NCBI GenBank assembly: GCA_025056175.1 | Contig: JANWWK010000050.1 | Coordinates: forward strand, 1 to 42,053 | Length of the DNA stretch: 42,053 nt | Direction: 5' to 3' | Source of the DNA: Anaerolineales bacterium | Lineage (GTDB): Bacteria > Chloroflexota > Anaerolineae > Anaerolineales > Villigracilaceae | Part shown: in pieces, positions 18,978-23,866 of the stretch | Position numbering within the stretch: position 1 is the first letter of the stretch | Layout of the letters: the number at the start of each line of letters is the position of its first letter | Notes under the pieces: generated by a model | The model's input: the letters and a program-made list of their open reading frames with translations, nothing else | Databases searched by the model: none | What the model was told of the DNA's origin: nothing | Position numbers and translations under genes: made by a program

Positions 18978-19303
18978 TACGACTGGCGTAGTCTGCTCTG
19001 CAAACAACCTTTTGTACGCCACTTTTCGGTGAGACTCCGGGATTTGGCGTGAAAACCGGTACGCGCAAGACGCGGAATGGACGGAAACGCACGGAAAAAG
19101 CAGTTTGGATAACGATTTCTCTGTGTTGCTCCGTTTCTTCCGCGTTTTCCGTGTACAAAAAGCGCCGGTTTGCGGCTATTTCCCTTCTTTCTGCAGTGCT
19201 GCGAAGCGCACTGAAGGCGAATGCCTGGGGATAGACTTCAATTGGACTTCGCTGTGCTGTGCGGCGGTATAATCGAGCGATATTTCACAAAAAGGAGGTG
19301 TAC
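18978..19303. repeat. Non-coding region with imperfect palindromic repeat
   Basis: This 326-base stretch has no convincing gene. Positions about 19064-19155 form an imperfect inverted repeat. The plus-strand run ACGCGGAATGGACGGAAACG (19073-19092) is mirrored by the complement of CCGTTTCTTCCGCGTTTTCC (about 19131-19150). The wording resembles dispersed CACGGA/CGCGGA-type intergenic repeats. A -10 TATAAT (19268-19273) at the right edge belongs to the YitT gene. Confidence 0.5.
19268..19273 (+). promoter_or_regulatory. -10 box for YitT-family gene
   Basis: Consensus TATAAT, 31 bases before the ATG at 19304. The leader carries the strong SD AAAGGAGGTG (19291-19300). A -35 candidate TTGGAC (19242-19247) has an over-long 20-base spacer. 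Confidence 0.5.
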
Positions 19304-20167
19304 ATGAAGAAATACTGGCCTGCTTTGCGCGATTTCGCGCTGATTCTTGCCGGCACGCTCACTCAGGCCGTGGCGTTGCGGATTTTTTTTGTCCCGGCCA
19401 ACCTGGCCTCAGGCGGTGTGAGCGGCATTTCGCAACTCATTCATCATTTCACCGGCTGGCCGATTGGTCTGATGGTGTTTCTTGGCAATATCCCGCTCTT
19501 TTTGCTCGGCTGGCGTTTTTTGGGCGGACCGGGCTTTGTGCTGCGTACGGCGTTTGCGATTGCCACCTATTCGTTCTTTGCCGATGCGCTGTTGTGGCTT
19601 CCGTTTTTTCCGCCGCGCGGAATCACCGATGACATTGTATTAAATTCGCTGTATGGGGCGGTAGTGGCTGGTTTTGGGTATGGATTGGTGTATCGTGGAC
19701 GCGGCACCAGCGGGGGGAGCGACATCCTGGCGCGCATTCTCGTTCACTATCGCGGTATTTCAATGACCCAGAGTTACCTGATGACCGATACGCTTGTCAT
19801 TTTGGGCGCCGGTTTCGTTTTTGGGTGGAAAGAAGCGCTCTATGCAGTCATCACTCTTTACGTTAGCGGGTTGGTGGTGGATACCACAATGGAAGGCGGC
19901 GGCACTGTCCGCACGGCGCTGATTATCACGTCCAAAGCGGATGAAGTGGCGCAACGGATTTTGACCGATATGGAGCGTGGCGTGACTCGGCTGAGCGCAA
20001 CCGGCGGCTACACCGGTCAGCAACGCACTGTGTTATATGTGGTTCTCTCTCGTTCCGAAGTGCAAATTTTGAAAGACATCGTGCAAAGCATCGATGAACG
20101 CGCCTTCATGGTGGTTGGCGCAGCACATGAAGCCCTCGGCGAGGGGTTTCAGCCGTTTCAAAAGTGA
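19304..20167 (+). CDS. YitT family membrane protein (DUF161/DUF2179)
   Basis: A 287-residue protein. The N-terminal part has five or six membrane segments of the YitT type, including FFVPANLASGGVSGISQLIHH and the conserved GRGTSGGSDILARIL. The C-terminal ~85 residues form the soluble DUF2179 domain (TALIITSKADEVAQRILTDMERGVTRLSATGGYTGQ), where the R-x-T/S-x-x-x-A/G-GYTG stretch is typical. The family is widespread and its function is unknown; a transport role has been suggested. The gene has its own -10 box and a near-perfect SD, and is convergent with the ATPase cassette. Confidence 0.9.
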   Translation: MKKYWPALRDFALILAGTLTQAVALRIFFVPANLASGGVSGISQLIHHFTGWPIGLMVFLGNIPLFLLGWRFLGGPGFVLRTAFAIATYSFFADALLWLPFFPPRGITDDIVLNSLYGAVVAGFGYGLVYRGRGTSGGSDILARILVHYRGISMTQSYLMTDTLVILGAGFVFGWKEALYAVITLYVSGLVVDTTMEGGGTVRTALIITSKADEVAQRILTDMERGVTRLSATGGYTGQQRTVLYVVLSRSEVQILKDIVQSIDERAFMVVGAAHEALGEGFQPFQK

Positions 20168-20196
20168 CCGTCAGCGTGAAAATACTGCGGGTTTGG

Positions 20197-20228
20197 AGGA
20201 GCGAGCGCCAAGAAGCCCTCGTTCCTCT
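20197..20228. terminator. Hairpin between convergent genes
   Basis: Arms GAGGAGCGAG (20197-20206) and CTCGTTCCTC (20219-20228) pair along ten bases with one G-T. They lie between the YitT stop and the ATPase stop. No U-tract follows, so termination is only suggested by position. Confidence 0.35.
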
Positions 20229-20232
20229 GGCA

Positions 20233-21327
20233 TCATCCTGACGGCAGATTCTGCAAATAGGCAGCAAAGATGGGGCTGAAAATTTGCGGCACATGTCCCT
20301 CGCCGGCGATGAGCAATTTCTTGGCGCGCAGGGCTTTGATGGCGGGCGAAGCATCGGCCATGTTGCCTTTGGCAAAGTCGAGAATGCCGGCCTGCTCCTC
20401 CGGCTCCAGGCTTGCCAGCAGTTTACGGCATTCTTCTTTGATGGTCTCTTCTTTTGCCAGCCAGCGCGGGTCGAAGCGATAGGCAACCCCTTCCACGGTG
20501 CGGCGCATGTTTGTGAACAGGGCCAGGACGGTGCCGGGATGCCCGCCACTGACTTCGTAGATTTTCTCGCGGGCGGTTTCGTTCAACGGATATTCGAAGC
20601 GTGCTTCCAGCTGCAAGAGCATCGCACGGACATCTTGCCATGAATACGGGCCGATAGCAATCTGGTTACGAGAGAGCAGTTCATAAAATCCTTCGTGTTC
20701 GTTCAGGTTCGGGCGCAGGTAGGTGGGCGGGTTACGCATCAGCAGCGCGTAGCACAGGCGATTCTTGTTTGCGTCGCGAATGCCGCGTAAGTGCGCGAAC
20801 ACTTTAGCAGGCAGGTGGCGATAGGCTTCGTCGAATTCGTCCATCAGTAAGCATAATGAGAGGTCGTTATCCACTACCATCAGGTTGGTGATGACCAGTT
20901 CCAGAAAGCGCAGGGCTTTGAGCGTGTTTCCGGGCTGGTCTAACACTGGCAAAAGGAAGGTTTGCAGAAACCCTGCCGATTTTCGCTCGATTTCAGGGAT
21001 GCTGCATTGCCCCGAAACCTGCACGATGTTGAACAACATCAGTTCGTAAAATTCCCACTCCGAGTAATCGCTCAGGCGGTTCATATCCAGCCGGATGATG
21101 AGCGTGTGAGCGGCTTTTTCTCCCAGATAGTGCTGCTGAACATCGGTTCGTATCAGATGGTCGAGCAGGCGGGTTTTGCCCATGCTGCCTGCGCCAATCA
21201 GATAGCAGGAATCCGCGCTTTTGATACAGTCAAAGAGTGGTTTCAACACTTCCTGACGGTAGTGGACATCATGTTCCTTGCCGAGTTCGCGCATGGTGCT
21301 GGTTTGGCGTGGGTCTATGGGGTTCAT
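20233..21327 (-). CDS. P-loop ATPase (AAA/STAND-like) of SPFH cassette
   Basis: A 364-residue soluble ATPase. Walker A GAGSMGKT is at residues 45-52, after an N-terminal segment that includes RQEVLKPLFDCIKSADSCYLIG. Walker B LSLCLLMDEFDEAY has Asp163-Glu164. The C-terminal part (ARFEYPLNETAREKIYEVSGGHPGTVLAL and a winged-helix-like end) is the style of Orc/STAND-type ATPases, which switch or assemble on signal. Start 21327 has a GAGG SD; the longer in-frame reading to 21552 would overlap the upstream gene. It is the last gene of the leftward cassette. The role is unknown. Confidence 0.75.
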   Translation of the reverse strand: MNPIDPRQTSTMRELGKEHDVHYRQEVLKPLFDCIKSADSCYLIGAGSMGKTRLLDHLIRTDVQQHYLGEKAAHTLIIRLDMNRLSDYSEWEFYELMLFNIVQVSGQCSIPEIERKSAGFLQTFLLPVLDQPGNTLKALRFLELVITNLMVVDNDLSLCLLMDEFDEAYRHLPAKVFAHLRGIRDANKNRLCYALLMRNPPTYLRPNLNEHEGFYELLSRNQIAIGPYSWQDVRAMLLQLEARFEYPLNETAREKIYEVSGGHPGTVLALFTNMRRTVEGVAYRFDPRWLAKEETIKEECRKLLASLEPEEQAGILDFAKGNMADASPAIKALRAKKLLIAGEGHVPQIFSPIFAAYLQNLPSG

Positions 21328-21380
21328 GGGGTACCTCGTTGGGAGAATTGGTTCGAGAACAGAAATCAAAGGGAAGGGAC

Positions 21381-22472
21381 TCAGGGTTCCAGCGGTGGGA
21401 GAAAGGTGACTCCAGGCAGGCCGGGGTCCGGGGGATACGGCCACCGAAAGACACAACAGGTTTCGTTCAGGTCGGCCAGGTTGCTCAGGCGAGAAAGGCG
21501 CGTTGTTTGCTGGTGGAGCGGTGTCAACTCCAGAGATTGCAGGCGCGCACACCAGATTTGGGCAGCAGAGGAGTGGGCTGGATGGATGACAAAGAAGCCT
21601 GGCGCAAGCAAATCGGCACTTTCGCGCGTAAGTGCTGCCCCCACGGGCCGCACCAGCGAATCAGGGACGCCTGCCGGACAGAGCAGATGGACCTGCACCA
21701 GGTAGTACCGCTTCCAGGGGTTCAGACGTCGTTCGATGAACGGTTCGACCCACTTATCGAACGGTTGCGCCGGGTGTAGATTGGAAACTTCCTGATAGGG
21801 TACCGCTGCTACCGTTTTCATATCCCACAACAGTTGTCGCTCATCGCCTTCCAGGATGCCAGGCTGCAGGGTGACGTTGTACAGCACGGGGTGCGGAAAA
21901 TTTGCCAGCACACGCCAGATTTGCTCATCTGCCCGCTCACTCGTTTGCCAGAAACCGGTGATGTAGGCCAGGTTGTTGCGGGTGCGGATGGGGCTCTCAA
22001 AGCGCATAATCCGCGCCAGGCTCTGGGGATTCTGACACGCCGTCAGCAGGTCTTGACCGGTCAGTTTCCTGAACGTGGCACGGGTCAGGGCGGGGTGGAG
22101 TTTATAGTCGTAAGGAAAGGTGGAGGTGATTTCCCGGCAGTATTCGAGCGCTTTTTGATGCGCTGTGCTTTCGCTTTCGGCCTGCACTTTACCCAGCAGA
22201 GCCAGCACAATCCCTTCGCCGGGCAGCGTGTGCGCGCGTAAGGCCAGCACACGCGCACCCGCAGAAGGTTCTTTCAGCGGGTCGCCATGAAATTGAGACT
22301 CAATGAAGAGTTTTTGACGCTCCAGGGCTTCGCTCATCAACGCACCGGCATTGAAGCCCCAGCGCAATTTTTGCAGTTCTGCCAGTGGCTGAAGACACAC
22401 CTGCACGGCAAATTGTGCCTGCCAGCCGGTGGAGGCGGGTTGGAGTTCGACCCAAGGGGAGCGTGCTTCCAT
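21381..22472 (-). CDS. Unrecognised protein between SPFH and ATPase genes
   Basis: A 363-residue soluble protein. It has no signal peptide, no membrane segment and no P-loop. The N-terminal half is alpha/beta-like (VELQPASTGWQAQFAVQVCLQ, ARVLALRAHTLPGEGIVLALLG). The C-terminus ends ETCCVFRWPYPPDPGLPGVTFLPPLEP. That final segment reminds me of the FRLP...PG end of N-terminal regions in HerA/VirB4-like ATPases, but the motor itself is absent. The gene begins 15 bases after the SPFH stop and ends 53 bases before the ATPase start. It could be an adaptor that links the other two, which is inference only. Confidence 0.6.
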   Translation of the reverse strand: MEARSPWVELQPASTGWQAQFAVQVCLQPLAELQKLRWGFNAGALMSEALERQKLFIESQFHGDPLKEPSAGARVLALRAHTLPGEGIVLALLGKVQAESESTAHQKALEYCREITSTFPYDYKLHPALTRATFRKLTGQDLLTACQNPQSLARIMRFESPIRTRNNLAYITGFWQTSERADEQIWRVLANFPHPVLYNVTLQPGILEGDERQLLWDMKTVAAVPYQEVSNLHPAQPFDKWVEPFIERRLNPWKRYYLVQVHLLCPAGVPDSLVRPVGAALTRESADLLAPGFFVIHPAHSSAAQIWCARLQSLELTPLHQQTTRLSRLSNLADLNETCCVFRWPYPPDPGLPGVTFLPPLEP

Positions 22473-22487
22473 GCTGTTGGTCTCGAC

Positions 22488-23618
22488 TTATCGTTTTTTC
22501 TTGGGGATGAGCAGTTCGATGAACTCGTCCTGGGTTTCTCTGGCACCTGGCTGTTTGGGTTCGTTGACCGGCGGGCTTTCTATTTCGCCGGTGATATGCG
22601 GCATTTCGGAGAGGATTTTCTCGACCAGTTGTTTCAACTCCTCGATGCTGCGCGGGTTCCCCGGCAATGCCTGCGCGTTCATCAGCGTCTTGAGGGCCTC
22701 GATGCGCGCTTCGATGATTTTTAGGTTCTCCTGATGGCTGAAGCGGGGCAACTGCCGCATTTGTTCCAGCTCAACTGCCAGTTTTTCGGCTGCCAGCAAA
22801 ATTTCGCGGCGTGTTTTTTCATTTTCGGCCTGTTGCTGCGTCACGCTGCCTTGTTCTGCCGTCAGCAGGCGTTGTTTTTGGGTGATTTGCGCCCGTTGTT
22901 CGATTTGCTTCAGTTCGCGTTTGCCCGTTCGCATCTGCACGGCTTCCTGCTCGCGCACATCGAGCAGGCGCAGGTGTCCCTGCCGGTCCAGAACGTGAAC
23001 GTTGTGTAAGGTGAAGGGGCGGCAGGCCTCGCTCACGCTCACCTCGCGCTTGACCGCTTCTGAAATTTGCTCGTTGCTTATCATTGTTGGAACCGGCAAA
23101 TCCAATACTTCTTCTTGCGTCTCACCAATCAATTCATCGTGACGATGTGTGCGGATGATGTGCCGCAAGGCGGCTTCGCACGCTTTGACAAGCGCATCTA
23201 ACGGGTTGCGGATTTTCTGCACTGCCAGTGCATCGTTGACGGTAAACGTGATTCCGCAGGAAATTGTCACGTTGGCGCCGTCTGTCGTTGTCGCTCGTAC
23301 ATCAGGCAGGGTCATATACCGCTCCTGGCGGTCTACATAGTAGATTTTGTAACGACCGGGCGGCAATTTGATATACCCGCCTTGCGCAAGAAGGCGTTCT
23401 CCATCTGCCGAGACCACGATGGCTTCCAGGTTGGGAAAGGACGGAACATACCCTGCACCCAGCAGGTTCACCTCCAGCGGATACGGCCCGGATACGATTT
23501 CGTTTTCCCCGAACTGAGGCGGCAGCAACTGCTGACGGCGACCCCAAAACTCCGTTAACTTCTTGACGAGATTCAGGTCAAGGTTTTCTTCGCCTTCCTG
23601 GTCAGGAATCTGGTTCAT
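22488..23618 (-). CDS. SPFH/band-7 domain protein
   Basis: A 376-residue protein. An SPFH-like core spans about residues 55-235. It includes GYIKLPPGRYKIYYVDRQERYMTLPDVRATTTDGANVTISCGITFTVNDA, the strand pattern where band-7 proteins go from the ligand loop into the T-x-D-G-x-x-V turn. A long charged coiled coil (about 240-330, rich in Gln, Glu, Arg) follows, then a Pro-rich link and a C-terminal segment EFIELLIPKKKR. No N-terminal membrane helix or signal peptide is seen, which is unusual for a stomatin-like protein. Start 23618 has the SD GGGGAG; an upstream in-frame start at 23720 has none. It is the first gene of the three-gene cassette. Confidence 0.78.
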   Translation of the reverse strand: MNQIPDQEGEENLDLNLVKKLTEFWGRRQQLLPPQFGENEIVSGPYPLEVNLLGAGYVPSFPNLEAIVVSADGERLLAQGGYIKLPPGRYKIYYVDRQERYMTLPDVRATTTDGANVTISCGITFTVNDALAVQKIRNPLDALVKACEAALRHIIRTHRHDELIGETQEEVLDLPVPTMISNEQISEAVKREVSVSEACRPFTLHNVHVLDRQGHLRLLDVREQEAVQMRTGKRELKQIEQRAQITQKQRLLTAEQGSVTQQQAENEKTRREILLAAEKLAVELEQMRQLPRFSHQENLKIIEARIEALKTLMNAQALPGNPRSIEELKQLVEKILSEMPHITGEIESPPVNEPKQPGARETQDEFIELLIPKKKR

Positions 23619-23686: not shown

Positions 23687-23866
23687 ACATCAGTGTATAT
23701 CGAATTCGGAAAAAATTCAATCGGTTGGAGGAAATTTTCTAAAAAAGTCCTGCGGGCGATAAATCTCCGGGCAGAATAGCGCAAGAACCTTCCGTCGTAA
23801 CCAAAATAGATACGAATTTTGTTAACCCTGTCCGCTTGTTTTTACATTTTGCGGCGCAGAGATTGT

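What the first reader, a model, noticed from the sequence alone, without database searches (positions are those of the whole stretch)
20233..23618. SPFH + unknown + P-loop ATPase cassette: candidate undescribed system
Three leftward genes, 15 and 53 bases apart, encode a soluble SPFH/band-7 protein with a coiled coil, a 363-residue protein I cannot assign, and a STAND/Orc-like ATPase. SPFH proteins form ring or cage scaffolds and STAND-like ATPases act as signal switches. The two together with a dedicated third protein suggest a membrane-stress or defence-type module. The SPFH protein has no membrane anchor, which is unusual. A palindromic operator lies at its promoter. The function is unknown.
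Basis: partly seen in the sequence, partly recalled or inferred. Interest (0 to 1): 0.75.

Follow-up and report, generated by a model that had tools for sequence, protein, structure and literature searches.

The report
Cut-down SPFH–STAND signalling operon
Three adjacent bacterial genes (a scaffold-type protein, a motor-less relative of a conjugation-pump domain, and a switch-type ATPase) are the remaining ends of a larger, apparently undescribed six-gene signalling operon found mostly in Chloroflexota, whose three middle kinase genes are missing from this genome.

Summary
P0001 is an SPFH protein without a transmembrane segment. The 'unassignable' P0002 is now assigned: its predicted fold is the N-terminal domain of the type IV secretion ATPase VirB4/TrwK (Z 18.1 over 272 residues), and distant relatives carry this domain fused to a HerA-type ATPase. 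P0003 is a STAND-type NTPase.

The trio is not a complete system. In relatives these genes are the first two and the last of a six-gene operon; between them lie an S1-receiver-histidine kinase, a receiver-GAF-histidine kinase and a receiver-APH/TCAD9 kinase. SPFH precedes P0002 in 17 of 17 scanned loci; P0003 follows, never directly, in all 11 with enough downstream sequence. The syntenic relative L089 has all six genes; this genome lacks about 7.7 kb. The remaining genes show no faster evolution.

Most likely it is a phosphorelay-to-STAND signalling module of stress or defence type, here reduced to its core. Defence is suggested by linked CHAT, TPR and, once, Cas6/RAMP genes and by fast divergence; it is unproven. 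An assembly error is not excluded. My paper searches found no description of this combination.

The parts
22488..23618 (-). P0001, SPFH/band-7 protein, 376 aa, no transmembrane segment, charged C-terminal stretch
   Evidence: Pfam Band_7 E 2.3e-9; hydropathy maximum 1.17; an SPFH homologue is directly upstream of P0002 in 17 of 17 scanned loci
21381..22472 (-). P0002, stand-alone VirB4 N-terminal-domain-like protein, 363 aa, no ATPase motor
   Evidence: AlphaFold2 model pLDDT 83.8, pTM 0.87; TrwK/VirB4 Foldseek E 2.2e-6 with TM-score 0.44, VIA Z 18.1, rmsd 3.5, 272 aligned, 6% identity; relatives fused to a HerA-type ATPase
20233..21327 (-). P0003, STAND-type NTPase, 364 aa (Walker A GAGSMGKT, Walker B-like LCLLMDEFDE, GGHPG motif)
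   Evidence: Model (pLDDT 71.7) matches archaeal ATPase 2qen Z 17.9, NRC4 Z 16.5, CED-4 Z 15.9; GKT and DEFD invariant in 12 of 12 aligned
21328..21380 (-). Deletion junction: 53 bp between P0002 stop and ATPase start, where L089 carries about 7.7 kb with three genes
   Evidence: blastn: window 21387-23581 pairs with L089 11086-8888, window 19263-21338 with L089 20796-18769; no remnant detected beyond similarity at the ATPase ribosome-binding site
23692..23720 (-). Conserved promoter-like block TTGNAT-N17-TACACT
   Evidence: AATTCGATATACACT identical in window, L089 and L114
23673..23686 (-). 14-bp palindrome TGTTACACGTAACA just downstream of the promoter-like block; not conserved as a palindrome

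Best explanation
The trio is the scaffold-adaptor-switch core of a six-gene signalling operon. Shown by sequence, fold or gene order: (1) an SPFH protein, (2) a motor-less VirB4 N-terminal-domain protein, (3) in relatives two histidine kinases with receiver domains (one with an S1 domain, one with several GAF domains) and a receiver-APH/TCAD9 kinase with an intact HGDLHxDN loop, and (4) a STAND NTPase as last gene. Inferred: the SPFH protein assembles into a ring or cage; the VirB4-like domain docks on it; the GAF/receiver/histidine-kinase proteins sense an intracellular signal and pass phosphate to the receiver-APH kinase; this sets the ATP/ADP state of the STAND protein, which recruits or releases effectors. 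Candidate effectors beside the operon in some relatives are CHAT protease-like and AAA-TPR proteins. In this genome the three relay genes have been deleted. The remaining core may be driven by another relay (a GAF-protein/TCAD9 pair exists on contig C4), may respond directly to its trigger, or may be at an early stage of loss. The rivals below are not all exclusive of each other: two concern the fate of the trio, two the purpose of the operon.
For: Six-gene order in relatives. SPFH directly before P0002 in 17 of 17 scanned loci, P0003 after it in all 11 loci with at least 7,091 bases downstream. Synteny of window and L089 on both sides with the middle missing. No full-length copy of the S1-receiver-kinase and only a 32% paralogue of the receiver-APH gene elsewhere in this genome (100% complete by estimate). 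Domains, tested by Pfam in 2 of the 11 complete loci (L089, L037/L095): S1, receiver, GAF, HATPase, TCAD9/APH; HGDLHxDN loop in 11 of 11 receiver-APH proteins. VirB4 fold of P0002, STAND fold of P0003. Trio intact and not accelerated: window-only against L089-only changes 22 v 30, 25 v 24, 12 v 15; dN/dS about 0.05-0.1. Conflict-type neighbours: receiver-CHAT upstream in L101; CHAT, AAA-TPR and radical SAM in L037; radical SAM and TPR in L104, radical SAM in L102, TPR in L091; Cas6/RAMP genes just upstream of SPFH-P0002 in L073. Faster divergence: SPFH and P0002 71% and 70% identical to L089 against 85-96% for six flanking genes. Patchy: P0003 in 5 of 11 genomes of the genus, own included, some of them incomplete.
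Against: No interaction, ring assembly or phosphotransfer was tested. The STAND model is of moderate confidence (pLDDT 71.7). No PADLOC model fits the operon. No defence gene was seen next to the trio in this window, nor beside the operon in every relative. SPFH-P0002 pairs also occur with other or no partners: L015 no ATPase nearby, L014 a RelA/SpoT-TGS-AAA protein, L074 a receiver/winged-helix protein and a GAF-kinase instead. The loci are related genomes, so counts are not independent events. The deletion is seen in one assembly only.
Confidence: 0.6

Rival explanations
1. The trio is a decaying remnant: after loss of the relay genes it has no function and will disappear.
For: Unique arrangement: P0002 and ATPase adjacent in 0 of 11 scanned loci with both; relay genes not found elsewhere in the genome.
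Against: All three ORFs are intact with no excess changes on the window branch, though a very recent deletion would look the same.
Confidence: 0.2
2. The deletion is an assembly error, and the organism has the ordinary six-gene operon.
For: Only one assembly shows it; all three genus relatives whose contigs span the operon have the middle genes; no acceleration of the remaining genes.
Against: No full-length S1-receiver-kinase was found on other contigs. The join keeps the P0002 stop and the ATPase ribosome-binding site, and its 53 bp have no clear match in L089 beyond that site.
Confidence: 0.18
3. The operon is a membrane-stress module rather than defence: the SPFH scaffold senses envelope damage, as YdjI does with PspA in Bacillus subtilis, and the STAND protein triggers repair.
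For: YdjI is an SPFH protein needed to localise PspA to the membrane (PMC8581546, abstract read).
Against: No membrane protein or PspA-like gene was recognised in the operon (by eye); conflict-type neighbours and faster divergence fit defence better.
Confidence: 0.3
4. P0002 is part of a DNA-transfer or secretion machine, as VirB4 is, and the operon controls transfer.
For: VirB4 fold and HerA-fused relatives.
Against: The stand-alone form lacks the motor and sits with SPFH in 17 of 17 scanned loci; no other secretion gene was seen in the operons by eye; no match in 72,556 plasmid or 50,697 phage records.
Confidence: 0.07

Closest known systems
NTP-dependent conflict systems of multicellular bacteria (Kaur et al. 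2020, PMC7159879)
   Same: Multi-gene NTPase-based systems, rapid divergence, occurrence in Chloroflexi, STAND domains as partners (passages read); the receiver-APH protein of relatives matches the Pfam family named 'ternary complex associated domain 9'
   Different: No MoxR or vWA component; a scaffold of SPFH and VirB4-like domain and a histidine-kinase relay instead. In that paper's main text SPFH occurs once, in a reference title, TCAD not at all, and the authors report no histidine kinase among vWA-linked effectors.
VirB4/TrwK of type IV secretion systems
   Same: Fold of the N-terminal domain
   Different: No RecA-like motor domain; partner is an SPFH protein
STAND NTPases (archaeal PABY2304, CED-4, NRC4, Avs3)
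   Same: Fold and Walker motifs
   Different: No fused effector or repeat sensor; 364 aa; in relatives it shares an operon with a phosphorelay
Soluble SPFH proteins (SPFH8/9); YdjI of Bacillus subtilis
   Same: SPFH domain; for SPFH8/9 also the predicted lack of transmembrane helices (PMC2636767 passages; PMC8581546 abstract)
   Different: Partners: VirB4-like domain, kinases and STAND NTPase

Membership tests
SPFH/band-7 | Band_7 domain over the curated cut-off | tested here: met
   38 bits against 23.6
SPFH/band-7 | N-terminal membrane anchor (usual, not universal) | tested here: not met
   Hydropathy maximum 1.17 in the window protein; none of 18 reaches 1.6, the highest being 1.59 in L090. 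SPFH8/9 are members predicted to be soluble
VirB4 ATPase | N-terminal domain fold | tested here: met
   Z 18.1, rmsd 3.5, 272 aligned to 7o43_B
VirB4 ATPase | C-terminal RecA-like motor with Walker motifs | tested here: not met
   363 aa; the match spans model residues 4-357 and no P-loop family was matched
VirB4 ATPase | Other type IV secretion genes nearby | not tested
   Neighbours read by eye only
STAND NTPase | Walker A and B | tested here: met
   Invariant G50-K51-T52 and D163-E164-F165-D166 in 12 of 12
STAND NTPase | STAND fold (NTPase, helical and winged-helix parts) | tested here: met
   2qen Z 17.9, NRC4 Z 16.5, CED-4 Z 15.9; Orc/TnsC at 14.6 and below; model pLDDT 71.7
STAND NTPase | Fused sensor repeats or effector domain | tested here: not met
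   No extra domain by Pfam; 364 aa
MoxR-vWA ternary conflict systems | MoxR ATPase and vWA protein as core | tested here: not met
   None among the trio or the three relay genes of L089 and L037
MoxR-vWA ternary conflict systems | TCAD-type associated domain | tested here: met
   TCAD9 E 3.9e-23 in L089 and 5.3e-28 in L037, in relatives only
Known anti-phage systems (PADLOC) | Match to a system model | tested here: not met
   Trio: none at E <= 1. L089 relay proteins: only weak matches over the receiver domain of the S1-receiver-kinase. Neighbours in L037: BovA (6.6e-8) over the CHAT part, PDC-M71B (1.7e-5) over the TPR part, pVip (4.5e-15) over the radical-SAM part

The most novel reading that the evidence does not exclude
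A previously undescribed immune-type signalosome: an SPFH ring or cage carries a motor-less VirB4 domain as docking adaptor, and a histidine-kinase/receiver/APH relay on this platform arms a STAND switch that releases CHAT-type effectors; in the window genome the relay has been shed and the core senses its trigger directly.
Probability: 0.3. Interest if true: 0.82.

Novelty: new variant of a known kind. Interest (0 to 1): 0.6.

Why it matters
It links three protein classes that I did not find described together: SPFH scaffolds, a conjugation-pump domain used without its motor, and STAND switches in one operon with a two-component relay. If right, it would be a bacterial signalling platform that joins phosphorelay sensing to STAND-type switching, and it would give the little-studied soluble SPFH proteins a testable job. 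It also shows that a neat-looking cassette in one genome can be the ends of a larger operon.

Tried and rejected
Plasmid and phage records: no P0002 relative. Viral contigs with P0003: 24 stretches matched a pattern, no relative confirmed. Sequence-only search of solved structures gave nothing convincing for P0001 or P0003.

Remnants of the missing genes at the junction: the 53 bp resemble L089 only near the ATPase ribosome-binding site. With that site included, 8 of 500 shuffles scored as high against L089 (122 of 500 against L114, 38 of 500 against L090); without it, 259, 215 and 178 of 500. So no remnant is claimed.

The palindrome as an operator: rejected for lack of conservation in the two relatives examined.

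The P0003 family in general as a marker of the system: rejected. It was found in 19 of 121 genomes of the order, own included. In one search the neighbours of the ATPase were displayed for 11 of 15 loci (four were lost to an overlap filter); by eye, four of these 11 have a receiver-domain gene beside the ATPase. Two of the four lost loci were looked at again: in L038 and L039 an SPFH protein is adjacent without P0002 (Band_7 checked for L038 only); L051 and L052 were not.

Fused P0002 relatives: of 14 loci with a long or probably fused ORF (13, plus L088), an SPFH gene lies nearby in 3 (L072, L075, L088). In L075 it is sub-threshold for Band_7 and rests on my own SPFH profile. Eleven show no Band_7 match on the contig, several of them short. 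The ATPase part was confirmed by family search only in L012/L088 and L072; for the rest it is inferred from ORF length. In most the P0002-like part is at the front, in L085 and L087 in the middle. L084 (297 aa, cut by the contig end, no SPFH found on its contig) was left out of both counts. In L073 the P0002 frame has a stop shortly before the profile's end and the contig ends about 220 bases further on, so its stand-alone status is uncertain.

Literature: eight paper searches showed no description of this gene combination in the titles, abstracts and passages that I saw. Only open-licence PubMed Central papers were searched. PMC7159879, PMC2636767 and PMC10910872 were seen as passages, PMC8581546 as abstract and section list, all others as search listings.

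Selection analysis: synonymous sites are saturated (dS 0.9-4.5), so dN/dS values are rough; the YN00 method failed for the trio.
Full report
What is there. The window (42,053 bases, contig C51 of a 3.57-Mb genome in 95 contigs, estimated 100% complete) holds three leftward genes at 20233-23618, as described: SPFH (P0001), P0002 and an ATPase (P0003), 15 and 53 bp apart. The genome is probably an Anaerolineae bacterium: the closest locus found by scan, L089, is labelled so and is syntenic with the window.

The unknown protein. P0002 matched no Pfam, PADLOC or NCBIfam family at E <= 1. An AlphaFold2 model from 17 sequences (mean pLDDT 83.8, pTM 0.87) matches the N-terminal domain of TrwK/VirB4: Foldseek E 2.2e-6, though with a TM-score of only 0.44 and 8% identity; VIA Z 18.1 with rmsd 3.5 over 272 residues, against Z 10 for the next group, an ESX-3 component. 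Independently, a profile of P0002 and four relatives finds matches in 18 of 298 genomes of the class, own included. Thirteen of these 18 are in long or probably fused ORFs; where tested, the rest of the protein is a HerA/DUF87-type ATPase. So P0002 is a VirB4 N-terminal domain without its motor.

The ATPase. A model of P0003 (12 sequences, pLDDT 71.7, pTM 0.64) is closest to the archaeal ATPase 2qen (Z 17.9), then plant NRC4 (16.5) and CED-4 (15.9). Orc and TnsC proteins come lower, at 14.6 and below. Avs3 was among the Foldseek hits. Walker A and B are invariant in 12 of 12. This fits a STAND NTPase without extra domains.

The trio belongs to a six-gene operon. A scan of genome contigs (84,980 species) with four stand-alone P0002 proteins gave 17 loci, 16 labelled Chloroflexi, Chloroflexota or Anaerolineae/Anaerolineales and one Nitrospirae. 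Two of them (L095, L103) are the genomes G087 and G054 that had gone into the query and the SPFH profiles. SPFH lies directly upstream in 17 of 17. A P0003 homologue lies downstream in 11, namely every locus with at least 7,091 bases after P0002; the other six end within 2,505 bases. Between P0002 and P0003 the 11 loci have three genes (ten loci; in L100 the first is split into two ORFs) or two (L101, which lacks the S1 gene). Pfam was run on two of these loci: in L089 they are S1-receiver-HATPase, receiver-GAF-HATPase and receiver-TCAD9/APH; in L037 (= L095) the same, except that the receiver of the APH protein was not detected. In the other loci they were recognised by length and sequence. 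The APH loop HGDLHxDN is present in 11 of 11. Five further P0002 loci (window, L114, L015, L073, L074) also have SPFH adjacent. Of these only the window and L114 have a P0003 nearby, and in L114 with the three middle genes in between.

What happened in this genome. L089 (the same genome as G400) is syntenic on both sides. The window aligns to it except for about 7.7 kb between P0002 and the ATPase. In the genus, P0003 was found in 5 of 11 genomes, own included. All three relatives whose contigs span the operon (L117/L089, L114, L115/L090) have the middle genes; the fourth (L116) shows the last three genes before its contig ends. The window genome has no full-length S1-receiver-kinase elsewhere and only a 32% receiver-APH paralogue on C4, beside a GAF-protein gene. 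The trio is therefore best read as the operon with its relay genes deleted. An assembly error cannot be excluded.

Is the trio still constrained? With L114 as outgroup, changes on the window branch and on the L089 branch are 22 v 30 (SPFH), 25 v 24 (P0002) and 12 v 15 (ATPase). So there is no acceleration, which fits either continued function or a recent deletion. SPFH and P0002 diverge faster (71% and 70% identity to L089) than the ATPase (84%) and the six flanking genes compared (85-96%), as conflict systems often do.

Context. In some relatives, conflict-type genes lie beside the operon: a receiver-CHAT gene directly upstream in L101; CHAT, AAA-TPR and radical-SAM genes facing it in L037 (the AAA matches are below Pfam's cut-off); radical-SAM and TPR genes in L104, radical SAM in L102, TPR in L091. 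In L073 the SPFH-P0002 pair follows Cas6 and two RAMP genes on the same strand. TCAD9 appears among CRISPR-linked CARF/SAVED proteins in a figure legend of PMC10910872 (passage read). In L014 the pair is divergent from a RelA/SpoT-TGS-AAA protein, with Tn7-type TnsA and a Mu-transposase-like gene (sub-threshold) on the same contig. In L074 the upstream genes are a receiver/winged-helix protein, a receiver and a large GAF-kinase. In the window itself I saw no such genes beside the trio.

Mechanism. Shown: domain content, gene order, conservation and folds. Inferred: an SPFH ring as platform, the VirB4-like domain as adaptor, a phosphorelay as input, the STAND protein as output. The adaptor idea rests on the constant pairing of stand-alone P0002 with SPFH and on three fused relatives that also have SPFH nearby; eleven others do not. 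Defence is my favoured purpose, but only at about even odds with general stress signalling.

Novelty. The parts are known. The combination was not found in eight paper searches of an open-licence library. It does not meet the MoxR-vWA core of the published ternary systems. I rate it a new variant of a known kind (NTPase-centred bacterial signalling/conflict systems).

Noticed in passing
L073:222-6065: SPFH and P0002 homologues follow Cas6 and two RAMP genes on the same strand, as if they were accessory genes of a CRISPR locus, possibly type III.
   Followed up: partly
L072:1359-10665 and L088:539-10822: Cassette of DnaK-like, DnaJ/zinc-ribbon-like (by eye) and SPFH genes with a VirB4-NTD fused to a HerA-type ATPase; by eye the SPFH C-terminus looks like a UBC/RWD-type domain, but Pfam did not confirm this for the two proteins tested (L088 and L075).
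   Followed up: partly
L014:7657-13858: A 1,127-residue RelA/SpoT-TGS-AAA protein divergent from SPFH-P0002, with TnsA and a Mu-transposase-like gene on the same contig.
   Followed up: partly
L109:2765-7688 (window genome, contig C4): A separate pair of a GAF protein (kinase by eye) and a receiver-TCAD9 protein that could serve the trio in trans.
   Followed up: partly
L092, L094, L095, L096, L098, L099, L100, L102, L104, upstream of SPFH: A protein of about 186-215 residues (HD-like by eye; the one tested, in L095, has no Pfam or NCBIfam match) lies upstream of SPFH in 9 of 17 loci, sometimes with different genes further out: a possible seventh component.
   Followed up: partly
L038:6850-9180 and L039:3282-5622: P0003-like ATPase followed directly by an SPFH gene without P0002; the ATPases have a C-terminal extension that looks like a winged helix by eye.
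   Followed up: partly
L101:5573-8627: A receiver-TCAD9 gene and a receiver-CHAT protease-like gene directly upstream of the operon.
   Followed up: partly
L100:11071-13243: The S1-receiver-kinase gene is split into two ORFs (frameshift or sequencing error).
   Followed up: no
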